From Deltaproteobacteria bacterium (GTDB lineage: Bacteria > Myxococcota_A > Polyangia > JAAYKL01), in contig JAFGQN010000137.1 of the NCBI GenBank assembly GCA_016935665.1, positions 1 through 35,954 of the forward strand: a DNA stretch of 35,954 nt, given 5' to 3'. The notes under the pieces are model-generated. The model was not told the DNA's origin. It saw only the letters and a list, made by a program, of their open reading frames with translations, and did not search any database. Positions 28,083 to 34,221 of this stretch are shown in pieces. How positions within the stretch are numbered: the stretch's first letter is position 1; each line of letters begins with the position of its first letter. Made by a program: the position numbers and the translations under genes.

Positions 28083-29441
28083 CTACGGGAAGGTCTTGCC
28101 CACCTGCTCCATCAGCCAGGTCATTGCGGGTCTGGGGCTGGTGTTGTTTACAAGGCCGCTGTCGGGCGCCATGCTCCAGGTGCGTCCCACAATCCATCCC
28201 CAGATGGTAAGGCCCCTAATCCAATCCTTGTTATCCATGAAGAAGGAAACCTGTTCCTGGTATTTGGTGAGCTGCTGCTGGTCATTGGTGGTGCTGATAT
28301 CGTATTCGGTCACATACACGGGCAGACCTGTATCCTCGTGAAGTTTGGTGATCAATTTCTTCATCGTATCTGTGGTAACGCTGGCGTGATCCAAATCGTG
28401 CGCCTGCGCCCCAATTGCATCAATGGGCGCTCCGGCCGCCTGCATGGTTTTCACAATATCAATGAAGTGCTGATTGTCGTTGGTCCACTCAATATTGTTG
28501 TAATCATTGAGAATCAGGACGGCGTTGGGACACGCTTCGTCCGCCCACTTGAACGCATTGATAATCCACTGCCAGGAGCCGTTGGTGCCGCCACCAATAT
28601 TGTTGGCGTACGCCGGTGTGGTATGGGGTGGGGGTTCATTTACCACGTCAATCATGCGGGTATTGGGATACTTGGTGCAAAACTCCTTCATCCACGATTT
28701 TACATCCGCTTCCTGTATGGATCCGGAGTTGCTGGGTTGCTGCGAACCCCAAACAAAACAGTGATGTTTGTAAAGAATATTGTGATCTTCGGTGTAGGCG
28801 TAAATCTGATCCAGCTGATTCCAGTTGCGGCCAGATGTGGCCGAACTCTGAACAGAGCCCCATTTGCCCGCATTTTCAGGTGTAATCTGATCCCAGTATT
28901 TGGAATAATCCATCCCATTTACATCAATGGAAGCGCCACCGGTGGTGATGTTACCCACGTAAAACGGGATAGCGTCAACAAGTGGATTTCCGGTATCCCC
29001 ATCGCCATCGCTGTCAGTGTCGCTATCGGTGTCGCCGTCACTATCCGTGTCGCCATCGCTATCCGTATCCGAGTCCGCATCGCCGTCCACTTGACAACAG
29101 ACTGGCGTACTGGCGTCTGCACACGTCAACTCAGCCACACGGTTGCCACCCAATTCTCTGCACTGACCCGTTGCCACACATTCGTGCGGACAGGTTGTGC
29201 CATCATCCGTGTCACCGTCTGAATCACCGTCGCTGTCCGTATCGCCATCGCTGTCCGTATCGCCGTCGCTGTCCGTATCGCCGTCGCTGTCCGTATCGCC
29301 GTCGCTGTCCGTATCGCCGTCTGAATCGGTATCCGCTTCCGTCGATGTATCATCATCACGTCCGTTATCTTCCGCCGAACACCCAAACACAACCACCAGA
29401 CTCAACATCATCAAATAATAGTAAATCGTTTTCCATTTCAT
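28083..29441 (-). CDS. Secreted lipoprotein GH10 endo-1,4-beta-xylanase
   Basis: A 452-residue surface enzyme predicted to cleave xylan backbones. The lipobox is at Cys21 (VFGC). Two acidic linkers (residues about 37-80 and 119-150) enclose a small Cys-rich module (CPHECVATGQC...CADASTPVCC). The catalytic domain (about 155-452) is family GH10: acid/base E269 in DVVNEP, nucleophile E379 in YVTEYDI, and GH10-type ITPENAGKW, LYKHHCFVWGSQQP and LTIWGWIVG. The start at 29441 follows AGGGGAAG. The combination of lipid anchor, flexible arm and xylanase suggests an enzyme displayed on the outer membrane. It probably belongs to a plant-fibre lifestyle. Confidence 0.93.
   Translation of the reverse strand: MKWKTIYYYLMMLSLVVVFGCSAEDNGRDDDTSTEADTDSDGDTDSDGDTDSDGDTDSDGDTDSDGDTDSDGDSDGDTDDGTTCPHECVATGQCRELGGNRVAELTCADASTPVCCQVDGDADSDTDSDGDTDSDGDTDSDTDSDGDGDTGNPLVDAIPFYVGNITTGGASIDVNGMDYSKYWDQITPENAGKWGSVQSSATSGRNWNQLDQIYAYTEDHNILYKHHCFVWGSQQPSNSGSIQEADVKSWMKEFCTKYPNTRMIDVVNEPPPHTTPAYANNIGGGTNGSWQWIINAFKWADEACPNAVLILNDYNNIEWTNDNQHFIDIVKTMQAAGAPIDAIGAQAHDLDHASVTTDTMKKLITKLHEDTGLPVYVTEYDISTTNDQQQLTKYQEQVSFFMDNKDWIRGLTIWGWIVGRTWSMAPDSGLVNNTSPRPAMTWLMEQVGKTFP
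29202..29333 (-). repeat. 18-bp coding tandem repeats in the first xylanase linker
   Basis: Five head-to-tail copies of an 18-base unit (GTCCGTATCGCCGTCGCT on the plus strand) run from 29235 to 29324; the first and last differ by one to four bases. Each encodes a six-residue SDGDTD-type unit. A second, less regular linker lies at 28992-29087. Confidence 0.9.
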
Positions 29442-30068
29442 AGCGCTTCCCCTGTCTTTCAGATTAAAGGTTTCTCGGCCAGAATGTATGTGTCCTCGAA
29501 AAGCAAATAAGGGTAAGAAATGCCCGTAAAATATAAAAAAACATCCTAAATCCATCGTGCTTATAAACAGGTCAAAAAAATACACTGCGTATGAAACCAT
29601 TTCAGACAAACTGCGACTCAAACGCTTTTGATGATGACTGATGTTGCACCACTCGTCTCAGGATGTATGGAAGCCTGCTACGTTTCTTCCACAACTACGC
29701 ATTTATCGAAGTTTCGTTTGGAAGCGCATTTTCTCCAGCGTGATTCATCGAACTGAAACCATCTCATTGTCATATGTCTACCCTGCCCCTATACCCCATG
29801 GACTCTCCGTCCTCATGGCCCCTCCGTCCCCATGGACCTTGGGGGTCGTCCTGGACGCAGGCAGTAATCCCCATAAAATGCCATAGACTTCCCCCACCCT
29901 CCAGCGTACGATACATGTGCTTTGGTAATTGAATGTTCAGTTCGGACAAATAATGTCCAGGTACAGGGGTATTCTGATTGTATAATGTGCTCCAGAAAGC
30001 ACAGATATATAACGGCAACCTATGTATACCGTTTGCATATGGAATCCACTCACGACAGGAAGAGATAA
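29442..30068. other. Spacer between the xylanase gene and the defence island
   Basis: 627 bases with no supported gene. It holds three 17-bp tandem units at 29788-29838 (ending in CCCCATGGACC or close variants) and a consensus TATAAT at 29981-29986 about 80 bases before hsdM, without a good -35 box. It may mark the left edge of an acquired island. Confidence 0.4.
29788..29838. repeat. Three 17-bp tandem units
   Basis: Units at 29788-29804, 29805-29821 and 29822-29838; the last two share CTCCGTCC-CATGG-CC and the first keeps only the CCCCATGGAC half. Non-coding. Confidence 0.5.
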
Positions 30069-31247
30069 ATGGCCAAATCCACATCCGTTGATTCTACAAA
30101 GAAGAAAGTCACCAAGAAAACCGCCACCAAAACAGTGAATTTTGAAGAAGCACTTTGGGATACCGCCAATAAGCTTAGGGGCACGGTGGAGTCATCTGAG
30201 TACAAGCATGTGGTGCTCAGCCTCATCTTTTTAAAATTTATCAGCGACAAGTTTGAAGACCGCAAGCAGCAGCTCATTGATGAAGGTCAGGGCGACTATG
30301 TGGACATGGTGGAGTTTTACACCATGAAAAACGTGTTTTACCTGCCCAATGAAGCCCGATGGAATTTTGTAAAGGACCACGCCAAGCAGGACAACATTGC
30401 CATTTTGGTGGATACGGCCCTGCACACCGTGGAAAAGAGCAACAAGTCGCTCAAGGGCGCATTGCCCGATAACTACTTTTCACGGCTGGGCCTTGAAAAC
30501 AGCAAGCTGGCCGCGCTTATTGATACCATTAACAACATCAACACCCAGGCATCTGAGTGCCACATGACCGAAGAGGATTTGGTGGGCCGGGTGTACGAGT
30601 ACTTTCTGGGCCGGTTTGCCGCCAGTGAAGGCAAAGGGGGCGGCGAGTTCTATACCCCCAAATCGGTGGTGACCCTCATTGCCGAGATGATTGAGCCCTA
30701 CAAAGGCAAAATCTACGACCCCTGCTGCGGCAGCGGCGGCATGTTTGTGCAGTCCATCAAGTTTGTAAACAGCCACAACGGCAATCAGAAAGACATTTCG
30801 ATTTACGGGCAGGAAAACACGGCCACCACCTACAAGCTGGCCAAAATGAACCTGGCCATCAGAGGCATCTCCGCCAACTTTGGAGAAGTGCCCGCCAATA
30901 CCTTTTTTAAGGACCAGCACCCGGACCTGAAAGCCGACTTCATCATGGCCAACCCCCCGTTCAATCAAAAGCAGTGGCGCACCGACGCCGAGCTGGTGGA
31001 CGACTACCGATGGGAAGGCCAAAAAGAAGCTGGCAAATACGAAGACATCGCAGGCTTTTGTAAATCGGCCACTCTGGAGGAGATTGAGAAAAACGACTAC
31101 GTGCTCACCCCAGGACGGTATGTGGGCGCCGCAGAAATCGAAGATGACGGAATCGCCTTTGAAGTAAAGATGAAAGAGCTGACAGAGACGCTGTTTAAGC
31201 AGATGGATGAGGCGAAGGAGTTGGAGGGGTTGGGTTATGGGGGGTGA
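30069..31247 (+). CDS. hsdM: Type I restriction-modification DNA methyltransferase subunit, internally deleted
   Basis: HsdM makes N6-methyladenine with HsdS in type I RM systems. The 392-residue product has the HsdM N-terminal domain (about 25-165: LWDTANKLRGTVESSEYKHVVLSLIFLKFISDKFE), GEFYTPKSVV, SAM motif DPCCGSGG (217-224) and catalytic NPPF (295-298). Right after DDYRWEG (317) it jumps to QKEAGKYEDIAGFCKSATLEEI, which in normal HsdM (about 500-530 residues) lies about 120-130 residues later. So the later half of the methylase domain is missing in frame, near base 31019/31020, and activity is doubtful. It starts with ATG after AGGAAGAG. The DUF1016 gene follows its stop by one or four bases. 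Confidence 0.88.
   Translation: MAKSTSVDSTKKKVTKKTATKTVNFEEALWDTANKLRGTVESSEYKHVVLSLIFLKFISDKFEDRKQQLIDEGQGDYVDMVEFYTMKNVFYLPNEARWNFVKDHAKQDNIAILVDTALHTVEKSNKSLKGALPDNYFSRLGLENSKLAALIDTINNINTQASECHMTEEDLVGRVYEYFLGRFAASEGKGGGEFYTPKSVVTLIAEMIEPYKGKIYDPCCGSGGMFVQSIKFVNSHNGNQKDISIYGQENTATTYKLAKMNLAIRGISANFGEVPANTFFKDQHPDLKADFIMANPPFNQKQWRTDAELVDDYRWEGQKEAGKYEDIAGFCKSATLEEIEKNDYVLTPGRYVGAAEIEDDGIAFEVKMKELTETLFKQMDEAKELEGLGYGG
31199..31220 (+). repeat. 22-bp direct repeat, copy 1 (3' end of hsdM)
   Basis: A 22-base stretch beginning GCAGATGGATGAGG and encoding QMDEAKE is identical to 32530-32551 in the middle of hsdS, 1331 bases away. The flanks differ. It may mark a past recombination. Confidence 0.85.
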
Positions 31248-31248
31248 T

Positions 31249-32307
31249 ATGATGCCGACAACATCAAAACAAAAAGCTGGTCTGACTGAGCGACCGGCTG
31301 GTTATGCTGACTGGCTGAAAACACTGAAGTCCCGTATCCATGTCGCCCAACAGCGGGCCGCATTACAAGTGAATACAGAACTGATTCAGCTGTATTTTGA
31401 AATTGGTCGAGATATTTTGGACCGACAGGATGTTGAAGGTTGGGGCGCCGGTGTTGTTGCCCAAATAGCCTTGGATTTACAAAAAGCGTTTCCAGGTATG
31501 AAAGGATTTTCTCGAACAAATCTGTTGTATATGCGCGCATTTGCCGAAGCATGGCCAGACTTTTCAAATGTCCAACAGCTTGTTGGACATTTACCCTGGG
31601 GGCACAATCTGGTGCTGCTCACCAAACTCAAAGACAGAAATTTGCGGCTCCAGTACGCTGAACGCGTGAAAATGCATAGTTGGTCACGCAATGTACTGAC
31701 TATACATATTGAACAACGCACTGTTGAGAGAGAGGGCAAGGCGATAACCAATTTTGAAACCCGTTTACCGGCCGAACAATCTGATCTGGCGAAGGAGAGT
31801 TTAAAGGATCCATATCTGTTTGATTTTTTAACGATCGACGCAGATGCTTCGGAAAAAGAAATAGAAAACGCATTGGTCGCACATATGACTAAATTTCTTT
31901 TGGAACTGGGCGCCGGGTTCGCATATGTCGGCAAGCAGGTACATCTGGAAGTTGGCGACAGAGATTTTTACATTGACCTGTTATTTTATCATTTAAAGTT
32001 ACACGCATATGTTGTGATTGAATTGAAAACGGGAGAATTTAAACCGGAACATACAGGACAGCTCTCGTTTTATCTGACCGCAGTAGACAAACAACTTAAG
32101 ACCGAAAATGATACTCAAACGATTGGGTTGTTGCTGTGCAAAAGCAAAAACCGGATTATCGCCGAATATGCTTTGAGCGACAGCACCAAACCAATTGGCG
32201 TGGCAGAATATCAGCTAACCCAAAGCCTGCCTGAAGAGTTTGAGTCCGCTTTGCCAAGTATTGAGCAAATTGAAAAAGAATTGGGAAATATTGACGATGA
32301 ACAATGA
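31249..32307 (+). CDS. DUF1016/YhcG-type PD-(D/E)XK nuclease family protein
   Basis: A 352-residue protein of the DUF1016 (YhcG) family, predicted PD-(D/E)XK nucleases often found inside type I RM operons. The N-terminal DUF1016_N part reads RIHVAQQRAALQVNTELIQLYFEIGRDIL and later GFSRTNLLYMRAFAEAWP and WGHNLVLLTKLKD. The C-terminal nuclease core is FYIDLLFYHLKLHAYVVIELKTGEFKPEH, giving the D and the E-x-K of the active site. It looks full length. ATG at 31249 or 31252 is preferred because a G-run lies 4-7 bases upstream; the frame is open further back into hsdM. Its end overlaps the presumed hsdS start at 32297. Partner hsdM and hsdS are damaged. Confidence 0.88.
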   Translation: MMPTTSKQKAGLTERPAGYADWLKTLKSRIHVAQQRAALQVNTELIQLYFEIGRDILDRQDVEGWGAGVVAQIALDLQKAFPGMKGFSRTNLLYMRAFAEAWPDFSNVQQLVGHLPWGHNLVLLTKLKDRNLRLQYAERVKMHSWSRNVLTIHIEQRTVEREGKAITNFETRLPAEQSDLAKESLKDPYLFDFLTIDADASEKEIENALVAHMTKFLLELGAGFAYVGKQVHLEVGDRDFYIDLLFYHLKLHAYVVIELKTGEFKPEHTGQLSFYLTAVDKQLKTENDTQTIGLLLCKSKNRIIAEYALSDSTKPIGVAEYQLTQSLPEEFESALPSIEQIEKELGNIDDEQ

Positions 32308-33385
32308 TGTCTGGCCAAAGCAAATCGTAGAGGCGGGGTACTGTGCCCGCCCAACAAACAGCGCACGCGTTCACCCGCGGACACGAGGCCCGCGGTCAGG
32401 ATGGATAGCCCAACAAAATGTAGGGGCGTACTTTATGTGCGCCCGCGTTCATTCCCTCTGGGACCGCGGAGCTCCAGCTCCGCAATTGCAGGCAGCACTG
32501 GCAGGCGGAGCTGGAGCTCCGCGATCCCGGCAGATGGATGAGGCGAAGGAGGCGATGGCGCAGGCGTTGTTTAAAAGCTGGTTTGTGGATTTTGATCCGG
32601 TCATCGACAATGCATTAAAAGCAGGCAACCCCATTCCAGAACAACTGGCCCCAAAAGCCGCCGCCCGAAAAGCCCTTGGTAAAGACAGAAAGTCTCTGCC
32701 GGATGACGTGCAGAGATTGTTTCCGAGTAGTTTTGTGGAAACGGAAGAGATGGGGTGGGTACCGGAGGGGTGGGAGATTCGTGAATTGCAGGATGTCGCG
32801 TCGTTGATTATCGATCATCGTGGAAAGACACCAAAGAAACTGGGAGGAGACTGGCAAGAGTCAGGCTATCCCGCTGTCTCCGCCAAAAACATCAAGAACC
32901 GGAAGCTTATTCGCAAAGACGCACTTAATTATGTCGATCAAAAATTGTACTCGAAGTGGATGCAAGAGGAATTACGAGCTGGCGACGTATTGCTTACTTC
33001 AGAAGCGCCATTGGGCGAAATGTACTACTTGTCATGCGATGTTAAATGGGTTTTGAGCCAGCGTCTCCTTGGCATACGAGCGGATAGCAAAGTGATGACA
33101 GGGATATATCTGTTTAACTGGCTGAATACAGACACCGCTGAAGCAGATATTCAGGGCCGAGCATCGGGAACGACTGTTCAAGGTATTAAGCAAAGCGAGC
33201 TGAGACAAGTTAAAGTTCTTTGCCCATCCAAGCATTGCTTGTCAGTATTCACTGAGAATCTGCTGCCCTTAATGGAAAAGCAAAAAGCGAACGATGATAG
33301 TATCGACGAATTGCAGACATTAAGAGACACATTGTTGCCTGAGCTGATGTCAGGAAAGCTCACTATGAACGGAGTAAATCAGTGA
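32297..33385 (+). CDS. hsdS: Type I RM specificity subunit with first target-recognition domain replaced by repeats
   Basis: HsdS normally has two target-recognition domains (TRDs), each with a helical spacer. Here the frame opens with MNNDVWPKQIV, overlapping the DUF1016 gene. About 67 codons of hairpin-repeat DNA follow (32328-32528). The genuine middle of HsdS then resumes at MDEAKEAMAQALFKSWFVDFDP (ATG 32534). TRD2 is present (EMGWVPEGWEIRELQDVASLI to SGTTVQGIKQSELRQ), as is the C-terminal helix (DELQTLRDTLLPELMSGKL). TRD1 is missing. The product would be 362 residues, or 283 if translation restarts at 32534, which has no good ribosome-binding site. It cannot read a normal bipartite site alone; some half-size HsdS act as dimers, so function is not excluded. 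GTGA overlap with the next gene. Confidence 0.8.
   Translation: MNNDVWPKQIVEAGYCARPTNSARVHPRTRGPRSGWIAQQNVGAYFMCARVHSLWDRGAPAPQLQAALAGGAGAPRSRQMDEAKEAMAQALFKSWFVDFDPVIDNALKAGNPIPEQLAPKAAARKALGKDRKSLPDDVQRLFPSSFVETEEMGWVPEGWEIRELQDVASLIIDHRGKTPKKLGGDWQESGYPAVSAKNIKNRKLIRKDALNYVDQKLYSKWMQEELRAGDVLLTSEAPLGEMYYLSCDVKWVLSQRLLGIRADSKVMTGIYLFNWLNTDTAEADIQGRASGTTVQGIKQSELRQVKVLCPSKHCLSVFTENLLPLMEKQKANDDSIDELQTLRDTLLPELMSGKLTMNGVNQ
32328..32528. repeat. Hairpin-repeat cassette inside hsdS
   Basis: About 200 bases unlike the surrounding gene. Two related hairpins of the form GTAGRGGCG...TGTGxxCGCCC lie at 32328-32352 and 32421-32444, each followed at some distance by dispersed GCCCAACAAA boxes (32349-32358 and 32408-32417). 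A strong stem follows: arms 32460-32483 and 32505-32528 (24 bp, one mismatch) around a 21-base loop, built on GCGGAGCTGGAGCTCCGC. Such elements are known as dispersed intergenic repeats in many bacteria. Here they sit in a coding frame without stops. Confidence 0.75.
32530..32551 (+). repeat. 22-bp direct repeat, copy 2 (middle of hsdS)
   Basis: Identical to 31199-31220 at the end of hsdM. It starts 2 bases after the hairpin cassette, exactly where recognisable HsdS sequence resumes. Confidence 0.85.
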
Positions 33386-34221
33386 GTTCATTAAACTCTG
33401 TGGAAAAACGAGTATTTGAAGAATTATTCGATCTGGGTTCCGGTCACGTTTTGAACTACTCGAATAAAACTTATGCAGAGTTTTTTCGAGAATGCGTGGG
33501 CATAGATATTTACAATCATAAATATGCGTTTAATGGAGATTCAAAAGGCAAACGCTTCAGAGCTTTCTGGGAACTGGAATCAGCCCCGGTGGTTGGAAAG
33601 GTGCTCTCTGAACTTCTGGATTTGTGGAGTTGTGAAAACCCAACACCCGACACGCAAGACAAACTTCGATATGACAAAGCCCGTTCAATTGCAGCCCGAC
33701 TGCAAGGTATTACAAGTGGAAGCGAGCCAGAGAGTACTGAAGATGATTTTATTAAGCAGCAATTTAAAAACATTGATGTCGGGCAGATTGGTCTTGAATC
33801 CAATTTGGAACCTATAGTGAGAAATCGACTCAACGAAGCACGGCACTGCCTGAAAGCTGACGCACCACTCTCGGTAATTTTTTTATGCGGTAGTGTATTG
33901 GAAGGAATCCTTCTTTCCGTGGCCAACCAGGAACCGAAGACATTCAATACATCTAAATCCACACCAAAAGATAAACACGGCAACGTCAAGAGATTGCCAG
34001 ATTGGTCATTGGCGGAACTCATAAATGTCGCCTATGAAACAGGCTTCATAAAGCTTGATGTAAAGAAATTCAGCCATGCATTGCGTGATTTCCGCAACTA
34101 CATACATCCTTTTCAGCAAGCTATGACTGGATTCAATCCAGATACACATACAGCCCAAATATGTTTACAGGTGCTTCGCGCAGCGATTGCTCAGTTGATT
34201 GAGAAACGGAGGCGATTTTGA
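33382..34221 (+). CDS. AbiJ-like protein with C-terminal HEPN-type domain
   Basis: A 279-residue protein likely to be an abortive-infection effector. The N-terminal part (VFEELFDLGSGHVLNYSNKTYAEFF, then GIDIYNHKYAFNGDSKGKRFRAFWELES) resembles the AbiJ N-terminal domains that are fused to different effector domains. The C-terminal part (about 130-279) is helical with R235-x6-H242 in LRDFRNYIHP, the Rx4-6H motif of HEPN ribonucleases. Family assignment is from memory of motifs and not tested. The start is GTG at 33382, overlapping the hsdS stop as GTGA, with GGAG 7 bases upstream; it should be translated with hsdS. The next gene again overlaps its stop. Confidence 0.7.
   Translation: MSSLNSVEKRVFEELFDLGSGHVLNYSNKTYAEFFRECVGIDIYNHKYAFNGDSKGKRFRAFWELESAPVVGKVLSELLDLWSCENPTPDTQDKLRYDKARSIAARLQGITSGSEPESTEDDFIKQQFKNIDVGQIGLESNLEPIVRNRLNEARHCLKADAPLSVIFLCGSVLEGILLSVANQEPKTFNTSKSTPKDKHGNVKRLPDWSLAELINVAYETGFIKLDVKKFSHALRDFRNYIHPFQQAMTGFNPDTHTAQICLQVLRAAIAQLIEKRRRF

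What the first reader, a model, noticed from the sequence alone, without database searches (positions are those of the whole stretch)
30069..31247. hsdM carries a clean in-frame internal deletion of about 120-130 codons
Seen: the SAM motif DPCCGSGG and NPPF are present, then DDYRWEG runs directly into QKEAGKYEDIAGFCKSATLEEI. Known: in normal HsdM these two blocks are separated by the rest of the N6-methylase domain. The frame is kept exactly. Either a selected mini-HsdM that binds DNA or SAM without methylating, a recent in-frame lesion, or an assembly collapse.
Basis: partly seen in the sequence, partly recalled or inferred. Interest (0 to 1): 0.68.

Follow-up and report, generated by a model that had tools for sequence, protein, structure and literature searches.

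The report
Decaying type I restriction-modification locus
A bacterial DNA-methylating gene has lost a large part of its catalytic domain through deletion, in an operon whose DNA-recognition gene is also broken and whose cutting gene is missing, so this is most likely an ordinary defence system falling apart rather than a new mini-enzyme.

Summary
The hsdM ORF (30069-31247, 392 aa) lacks 134-139 residues present at that point in its full-length relatives, and 8 more near its C-terminus. Both deletions are in frame. At both ends of the big deletion relatives have W-x-G codons (TGGnnnGGn), so a microhomology deletion there keeps the frame without selection. The lost block holds about half the methylase beta-sheet. 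AlphaFold2 folds a full-length relative (mean pLDDT 77); with nearly the same homologues the window protein keeps mainly its N-terminal helical domain, and most of the methylase part falls below pLDDT 50.

The rest of the operon is also broken. hsdS has lost its first target-recognition domain, with a multicopy palindromic repeat in its place. No intact hsdR of this type was found in the 95%-complete genome, only a 46-codon fossil with a stop, beside another copy of the palindrome. The junction was not found elsewhere (80 nearest loci, 317 genomes of the class, a viral scan).

Best reading: a probably horizontally acquired type I R-M operon in recent decay. Assembly collapse is unlikely but untested without reads. 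A selected mini-HsdM is not excluded but has no positive support.

The parts
30069..31247 (+). hsdM with two internal in-frame deletions (392 aa; relatives are mostly 520-570 aa)
   Evidence: ORF; Pfam HsdM_N 26-154 and N6_Mtase best stretch 168-318 matching only positions 2-153 of 311; alignment with relatives
31011..31022 (+). Large deletion junction: TGG GAA GGC | CAA; 134-139 codons missing compared with relatives
31218..31226 (+). Small deletion junction: GAG TTG GAG; 8 codons (LDAVIRKN type) missing compared with 75 of 75 relatives
31199..31220 (+). 22-bp direct repeat, hsdM copy (GCAGATGGATGAGGCGAAGGAG)
31249..32307 (+). DUF1016/YhcG PDDEXK nuclease gene between hsdM and hsdS (longest ORF opens at 31207, so the start is uncertain)
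   Evidence: Pfam DUF1016_N and YhcG_C; PADLOC PDC-S02; YhcG relatives between hsdM and hsdS in L007, L008, L031, L078, L083
32458..32528 (.). Multicopy palindromic repeat (hairpin) in place of the 5' half of hsdS
   Evidence: matches its own reverse complement and places on seven other contigs; DNA folding z = -5.3
32530..32551 (+). 22-bp direct repeat, hsdS copy; gives HsdM-like QMDEAKE where relatives' HsdS has QMNxTLE or similar
32532..33385 (+). hsdS remnant: central conserved helix plus second TRD only; TRD1 missing (frame is open from 32240)
   Evidence: residues 72-354 align to 173-449 of 459 of PDLC03168; the same part aligns to the second half of HsdS in relatives
33382..34221 (+). 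Uncharacterised operon passenger; homologues follow hsdS in L010 (45%) and L065 (48%), and lie upstream of hsdR in L010
   Evidence: no Pfam hit

Best explanation
This is a type I restriction-modification operon in decay, whose closest relatives are mainly in marine gammaproteobacteria and which was therefore probably acquired horizontally. A deletion between short matched W-x-G codon motifs removed about 134-139 codons of hsdM, covering the second half of the methylase sheet, and a second small deletion removed 8 codons near its C-terminus. The gene stays open because both deletions kept the frame and are recent. The product should lack methylase activity and is probably unstable. With half of hsdS gone and no matching hsdR found, the locus should not work as an R-M system; the DUF1016 nuclease and the other passenger genes may still be functional. 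Shown: both deletions, loss of hsdS TRD1, no intact matching hsdR in the assembly. Inferred: mechanism and order of the deletions, loss of activity, horizontal origin.
For: The block is present in all comparable relatives, which are up to 83% identical in the flanking part. Relatives have W-x-G codons at both ends, e.g. L042 TGGGAAGGC and TGGCGTGGT, about 139 codons apart. The 8-codon loss lies between an LD and an LE codon pair, as in L009 CTGGAT...CTGGAG. hsdS lacks TRD1, and a multicopy palindrome lies there. HsdR of L010 finds only a 46-residue fragment with a TAG stop at C52:8441-8578; the single HSDR_N hit belongs to another system on C202. AlphaFold2 with nearly identical alignments: window protein mean pLDDT 60, mostly below 50 over residues 195-358; full-length L004 mean 77 with the sheet formed. 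The lost block, L004 residues about 307-440, holds strands 328-339, 363-369, 381-387 and 404-409. Retained near-invariant residues are intact at 143 of 144 positions, which fits a recent loss.
Against: The hsdM frame is intact; 143 of 144 conserved positions being kept would also fit selection on the shortened protein. Two deletions both in frame would happen by chance in about 1 of 9 cases if breakpoints were random. The contig ends at 35954, so an hsdR in a gap of the assembly is possible.
Confidence: 0.85

Rival explanations
1. Assembly collapse or chimera: the real genome carries full-length hsdM and the assembler skipped about 400 bp.
For: The genome is a multi-contig draft (249 contigs); strain mixtures can produce false joins.
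Against: Collapse needs a repeat of about k-mer length at both ends; relatives show only about 3-6 matching bases there. A 121-bp junction query finds one place, and the missing block of this family is not on any other contig; the best hits are 34-35% and belong to other methylases. Further lesions in the same operon fit real decay.
Confidence: 0.08
2. Selected mini-HsdM: the shortened protein is kept as an adaptor, decoy or regulator, for example as an N-terminal domain that docks on HsdS or HsdR, perhaps together with the half HsdS and the DUF1016 nuclease.
For: Open frame, both deletions in frame, conserved residues kept; N-terminal helical domain predicted with high confidence; engineered half-HsdS proteins can dimerise and work (PMC6158711), so the single-TRD HsdS is not by itself dead.
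Against: No second example among the 80 nearest loci, 317 genomes of the class or in a viral scan; most of the methylase domain has no confident predicted fold; SAM and NPPF motifs are kept although they should have no use without the rest of the fold, as expected after recent loss.
Confidence: 0.05
3. The short form is ancestral in this lineage (the block never existed here).
For: None found.
Against: All comparable relatives and the solved relatives aligned (3KHK, PacII M) have the block; the two other genus members searched have no match and the best in the family is 51% identical, so no short-HsdM lineage is visible.
Confidence: 0.01

Closest known systems
Type I modification subunit HsdM, gamma-class N6-adenine methylase (nearest solved: 3KHK from Methanosarcina mazei; PacII M1/M2; EcoR124 M)
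   Same: HsdM_N domain, motif I DPCCGSGG, motif IV NPPF and C-terminal end; 81-83% identity to marine gammaproteobacterial HsdM up to residue 317
   Different: Lacks 134-139 residues covering the second half of the methylase sheet, plus 8 residues near the C-terminus
Degenerate R-M loci with truncated genes, e.g. those described in Mycoplasma agalactiae (PMC9465063)
   Same: R-M locus with truncated subunit genes
   Different: There the passages read describe a frameshifted hsdR and truncated mod genes; here two in-frame deletions in hsdM plus loss of hsdS TRD1
Half-HsdS / single-TRD specificity subunits (PMC3874165, PMC6158711)
   Same: The hsdS remnant holds one TRD plus a conserved helix
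   Different: The engineered example keeps the N-terminal half; here the C-terminal half remains, a palindromic repeat sits at its start, and the partner HsdM is defective

Membership tests
Functional type I HsdM | HsdM_N domain | tested here: met
   PF12161 over residues 26-154, E 5.9e-23
Functional type I HsdM | Motif I and NPPF catalytic motif | tested here: met
   DPCCGSGG and NPPF present and conserved
Functional type I HsdM | Complete N6_Mtase domain | tested here: not met
   Best stretch matches only profile positions 2-153 of 311; TIGR00497 score 121 against cut-off 243; 134-139 residues missing
Functional type I HsdM | Methylase fold | tested here: not met
   By prediction only: pLDDT mostly below 50 over residues 195-358, while a full-length relative folds
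Functional type I R-M system | HsdS with two TRDs | tested here: not met
   Only one Methylase_S match; aligns from residue 173 of 459
Functional type I R-M system | Matching hsdR in the genome | tested here: inconclusive
   Only a 46-residue fragment with a stop was found; genome about 95% complete and the contig ends at 35954, so absence is likely but not certain
Functional type I R-M system | m6A at a bipartite site in the genome | not testable with these tools
   Needs long-read methylation data

The most novel reading that the evidence does not exclude
The shortened HsdM is a retained, non-methylating adaptor made of the N-terminal helical domain and the C-terminal helix, working with the single-TRD HsdS and the DUF1016 nuclease as a minimal methylation-independent defence complex.
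Probability: 0.03. Interest if true: 0.7.

Novelty: new member of a known kind. Interest (0 to 1): 0.13.

Why it matters
Mostly as a caution: a clean in-frame internal deletion is not by itself a sign of a selected mini-protein, because deletions between codon-level repeats of a conserved motif (here W-x-G) keep the frame automatically. It also gives a well-preserved snapshot of a type I R-M operon coming apart, with a passenger nuclease gene (DUF1016) still intact.

Tried and rejected
Same junction elsewhere: a degenerate DNA pattern in viral contigs gave three hits, none encoding HsdM; in 317 genomes of the class no match to the window HsdM runs through the joint. A second, full-length copy in the same genome: none of this family. 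L065 looked like a parallel case (398-aa HsdM frame), but its frame ends in a different, out-of-frame lesion with an inserted sequence. hsdR beyond the window: the contig ends at 35954. A structure search with the window model returned only HsdM entries as significant matches, with rmsd 7-12. Metagenome scans were capped at 0 and not used. A literature search for HsdM with in-frame deletions found laboratory knock-outs, not natural mini-HsdMs.

Full report
Observation. The ORF at 30069-31247 encodes 392 residues without a stop, with motif I DPCCGSGG, NPPF, and then RWEG joined directly to QKEAGKYEDIAGFCKSATLEEI. Pfam matches HsdM_N fully, but the best N6_Mtase stretch covers only positions 2-153 of 311. 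The NCBIfam hsdM equivalog scores 121 bits against a cut-off of 243.

Comparison. A scan of 84,980 species genomes gave 490 relatives; the best 80 are 70-83% identical over the first 317 residues, most of the closest being marine gammaproteobacteria. In the alignment of these, the number of residues between the left and right joints is 134 in 37 sequences, 137-139 in 32, and larger in a few. A second in-frame loss, 8 residues near the C-terminus, is unique to the window among 75 comparable sequences. At positions kept in the window, 143 of 144 near-invariant residues are intact, no worse than in normal relatives, so the losses are recent or the rest is still constrained. The two other genus members searched have no match and the best match in the family is about 51% identical, which points to horizontal acquisition (inference).

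How the deletion arose (inference). In relatives the left end reads R-W-x-G and the right end x-W-R-G, with codons such as TGGGAAGGC (left) and TGGCGTGGC (right); the joint in the window is TGG GAA GGC CAA. A slip or end-joining event at this short in-register match gives an in-frame product without selection. The small deletion lies between an LD and an LE codon pair in the same frame. The right-hand joint also lies in a stretch that varies in length among relatives, and several carry short insertions there.

Consequence. AlphaFold2 with 43 sequences gives the window protein a mean pLDDT of 60; residues 25-160 are mostly confident, but most of 195-358 falls below 50. The full-length relative L004 with the same set less the window gives 77 and a formed methylase sheet; the lost block covers its strands 328-339, 363-369, 381-387 and 404-409. 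Foldseek finds 3KHK for the full-length model at TM 0.77 and for the window model only at TM 0.51 with rmsd 11.7. Low pLDDT is a prediction, not proof of unfolding.

The rest of the operon. A DUF1016/YhcG nuclease gene follows hsdM; a YhcG relative lies between hsdM and hsdS also in loci with full-length HsdM, such as L007, L008, L031 and L078, so it is a normal passenger. hsdS keeps only its central helix and second TRD. In front of it lies a palindromic repeat with copies on seven other contigs that folds as a strong hairpin. [quoted passage not shown] relatives' HsdS has QMNxTLE or similar there, not QMDEAKE, which suggests a recombination scar between the two genes. The next gene has relatives after hsdS in L010 and L065.

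hsdR. The contig ends at 35954. An HsdR query from a relative (L010) finds only a 46-residue fragment containing a TAG at C52:8441-8578, next to another copy of the palindrome. The only HSDR_N match is part of a different R-M system on C202.

Assembly question. The junction occurs once. The missing block of this family occurs nowhere else in the assembly; the 34-35% hits are other methylases. Judged from relatives, nothing long enough to collapse an assembly graph is present at the ends. Reads were not available, so this stays open at low probability.

Verdict. An ordinary, recent degradation of a type I R-M operon. Single-TRD HsdS proteins can work when paired (PMC6158711; review PMC3874165), so the hsdS remnant alone would not prove loss of function; the HsdM lesion and the missing hsdR do most of the work.

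Noticed in passing
31199-31220 and 32530-32551: Exact 22-bp direct repeat shared by the hsdM end and the hsdS remnant start; it replaces the usual HsdS motif QMNxTLE by HsdM's QMDEAKE, probably a gene-conversion or recombination scar.
   Followed up: partly
32458-32528; also C14, C52, C89, C137, C117, C209, C176 of the genome: Multicopy palindromic repeat (about 70 bp, GGAGCTCCAGCTCC core); two of its copies lie beside R-M gene remnants (here and C52:8327-8409).
   Followed up: partly
L120 (C226:24500-28418), contig end: Another HsdM-like frame containing NPPF and the later block but with no N-terminal half found upstream; it runs off the contig end. L099 (C182) begins inside an hsdS, so the two may be one broken operon.
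   Followed up: no
L065 5992-7450: A Spirochaetia MAG has hsdM broken out of frame in the same region, and what looks like a DUF559-type insert inside hsdS.
   Followed up: partly
L076 6001-8049: HsdM with about 400-500 extra bases between the methylase block and the C-terminal part (691-aa frame).
   Followed up: no
window 28083-29621 (-): GH10 glycosidase with a long SDGDTDSDGDT repeat linker; similar Asp/Ser/Thr-rich linkers occur in several other proteins of this genome (e.g. on C52).
   Followed up: no
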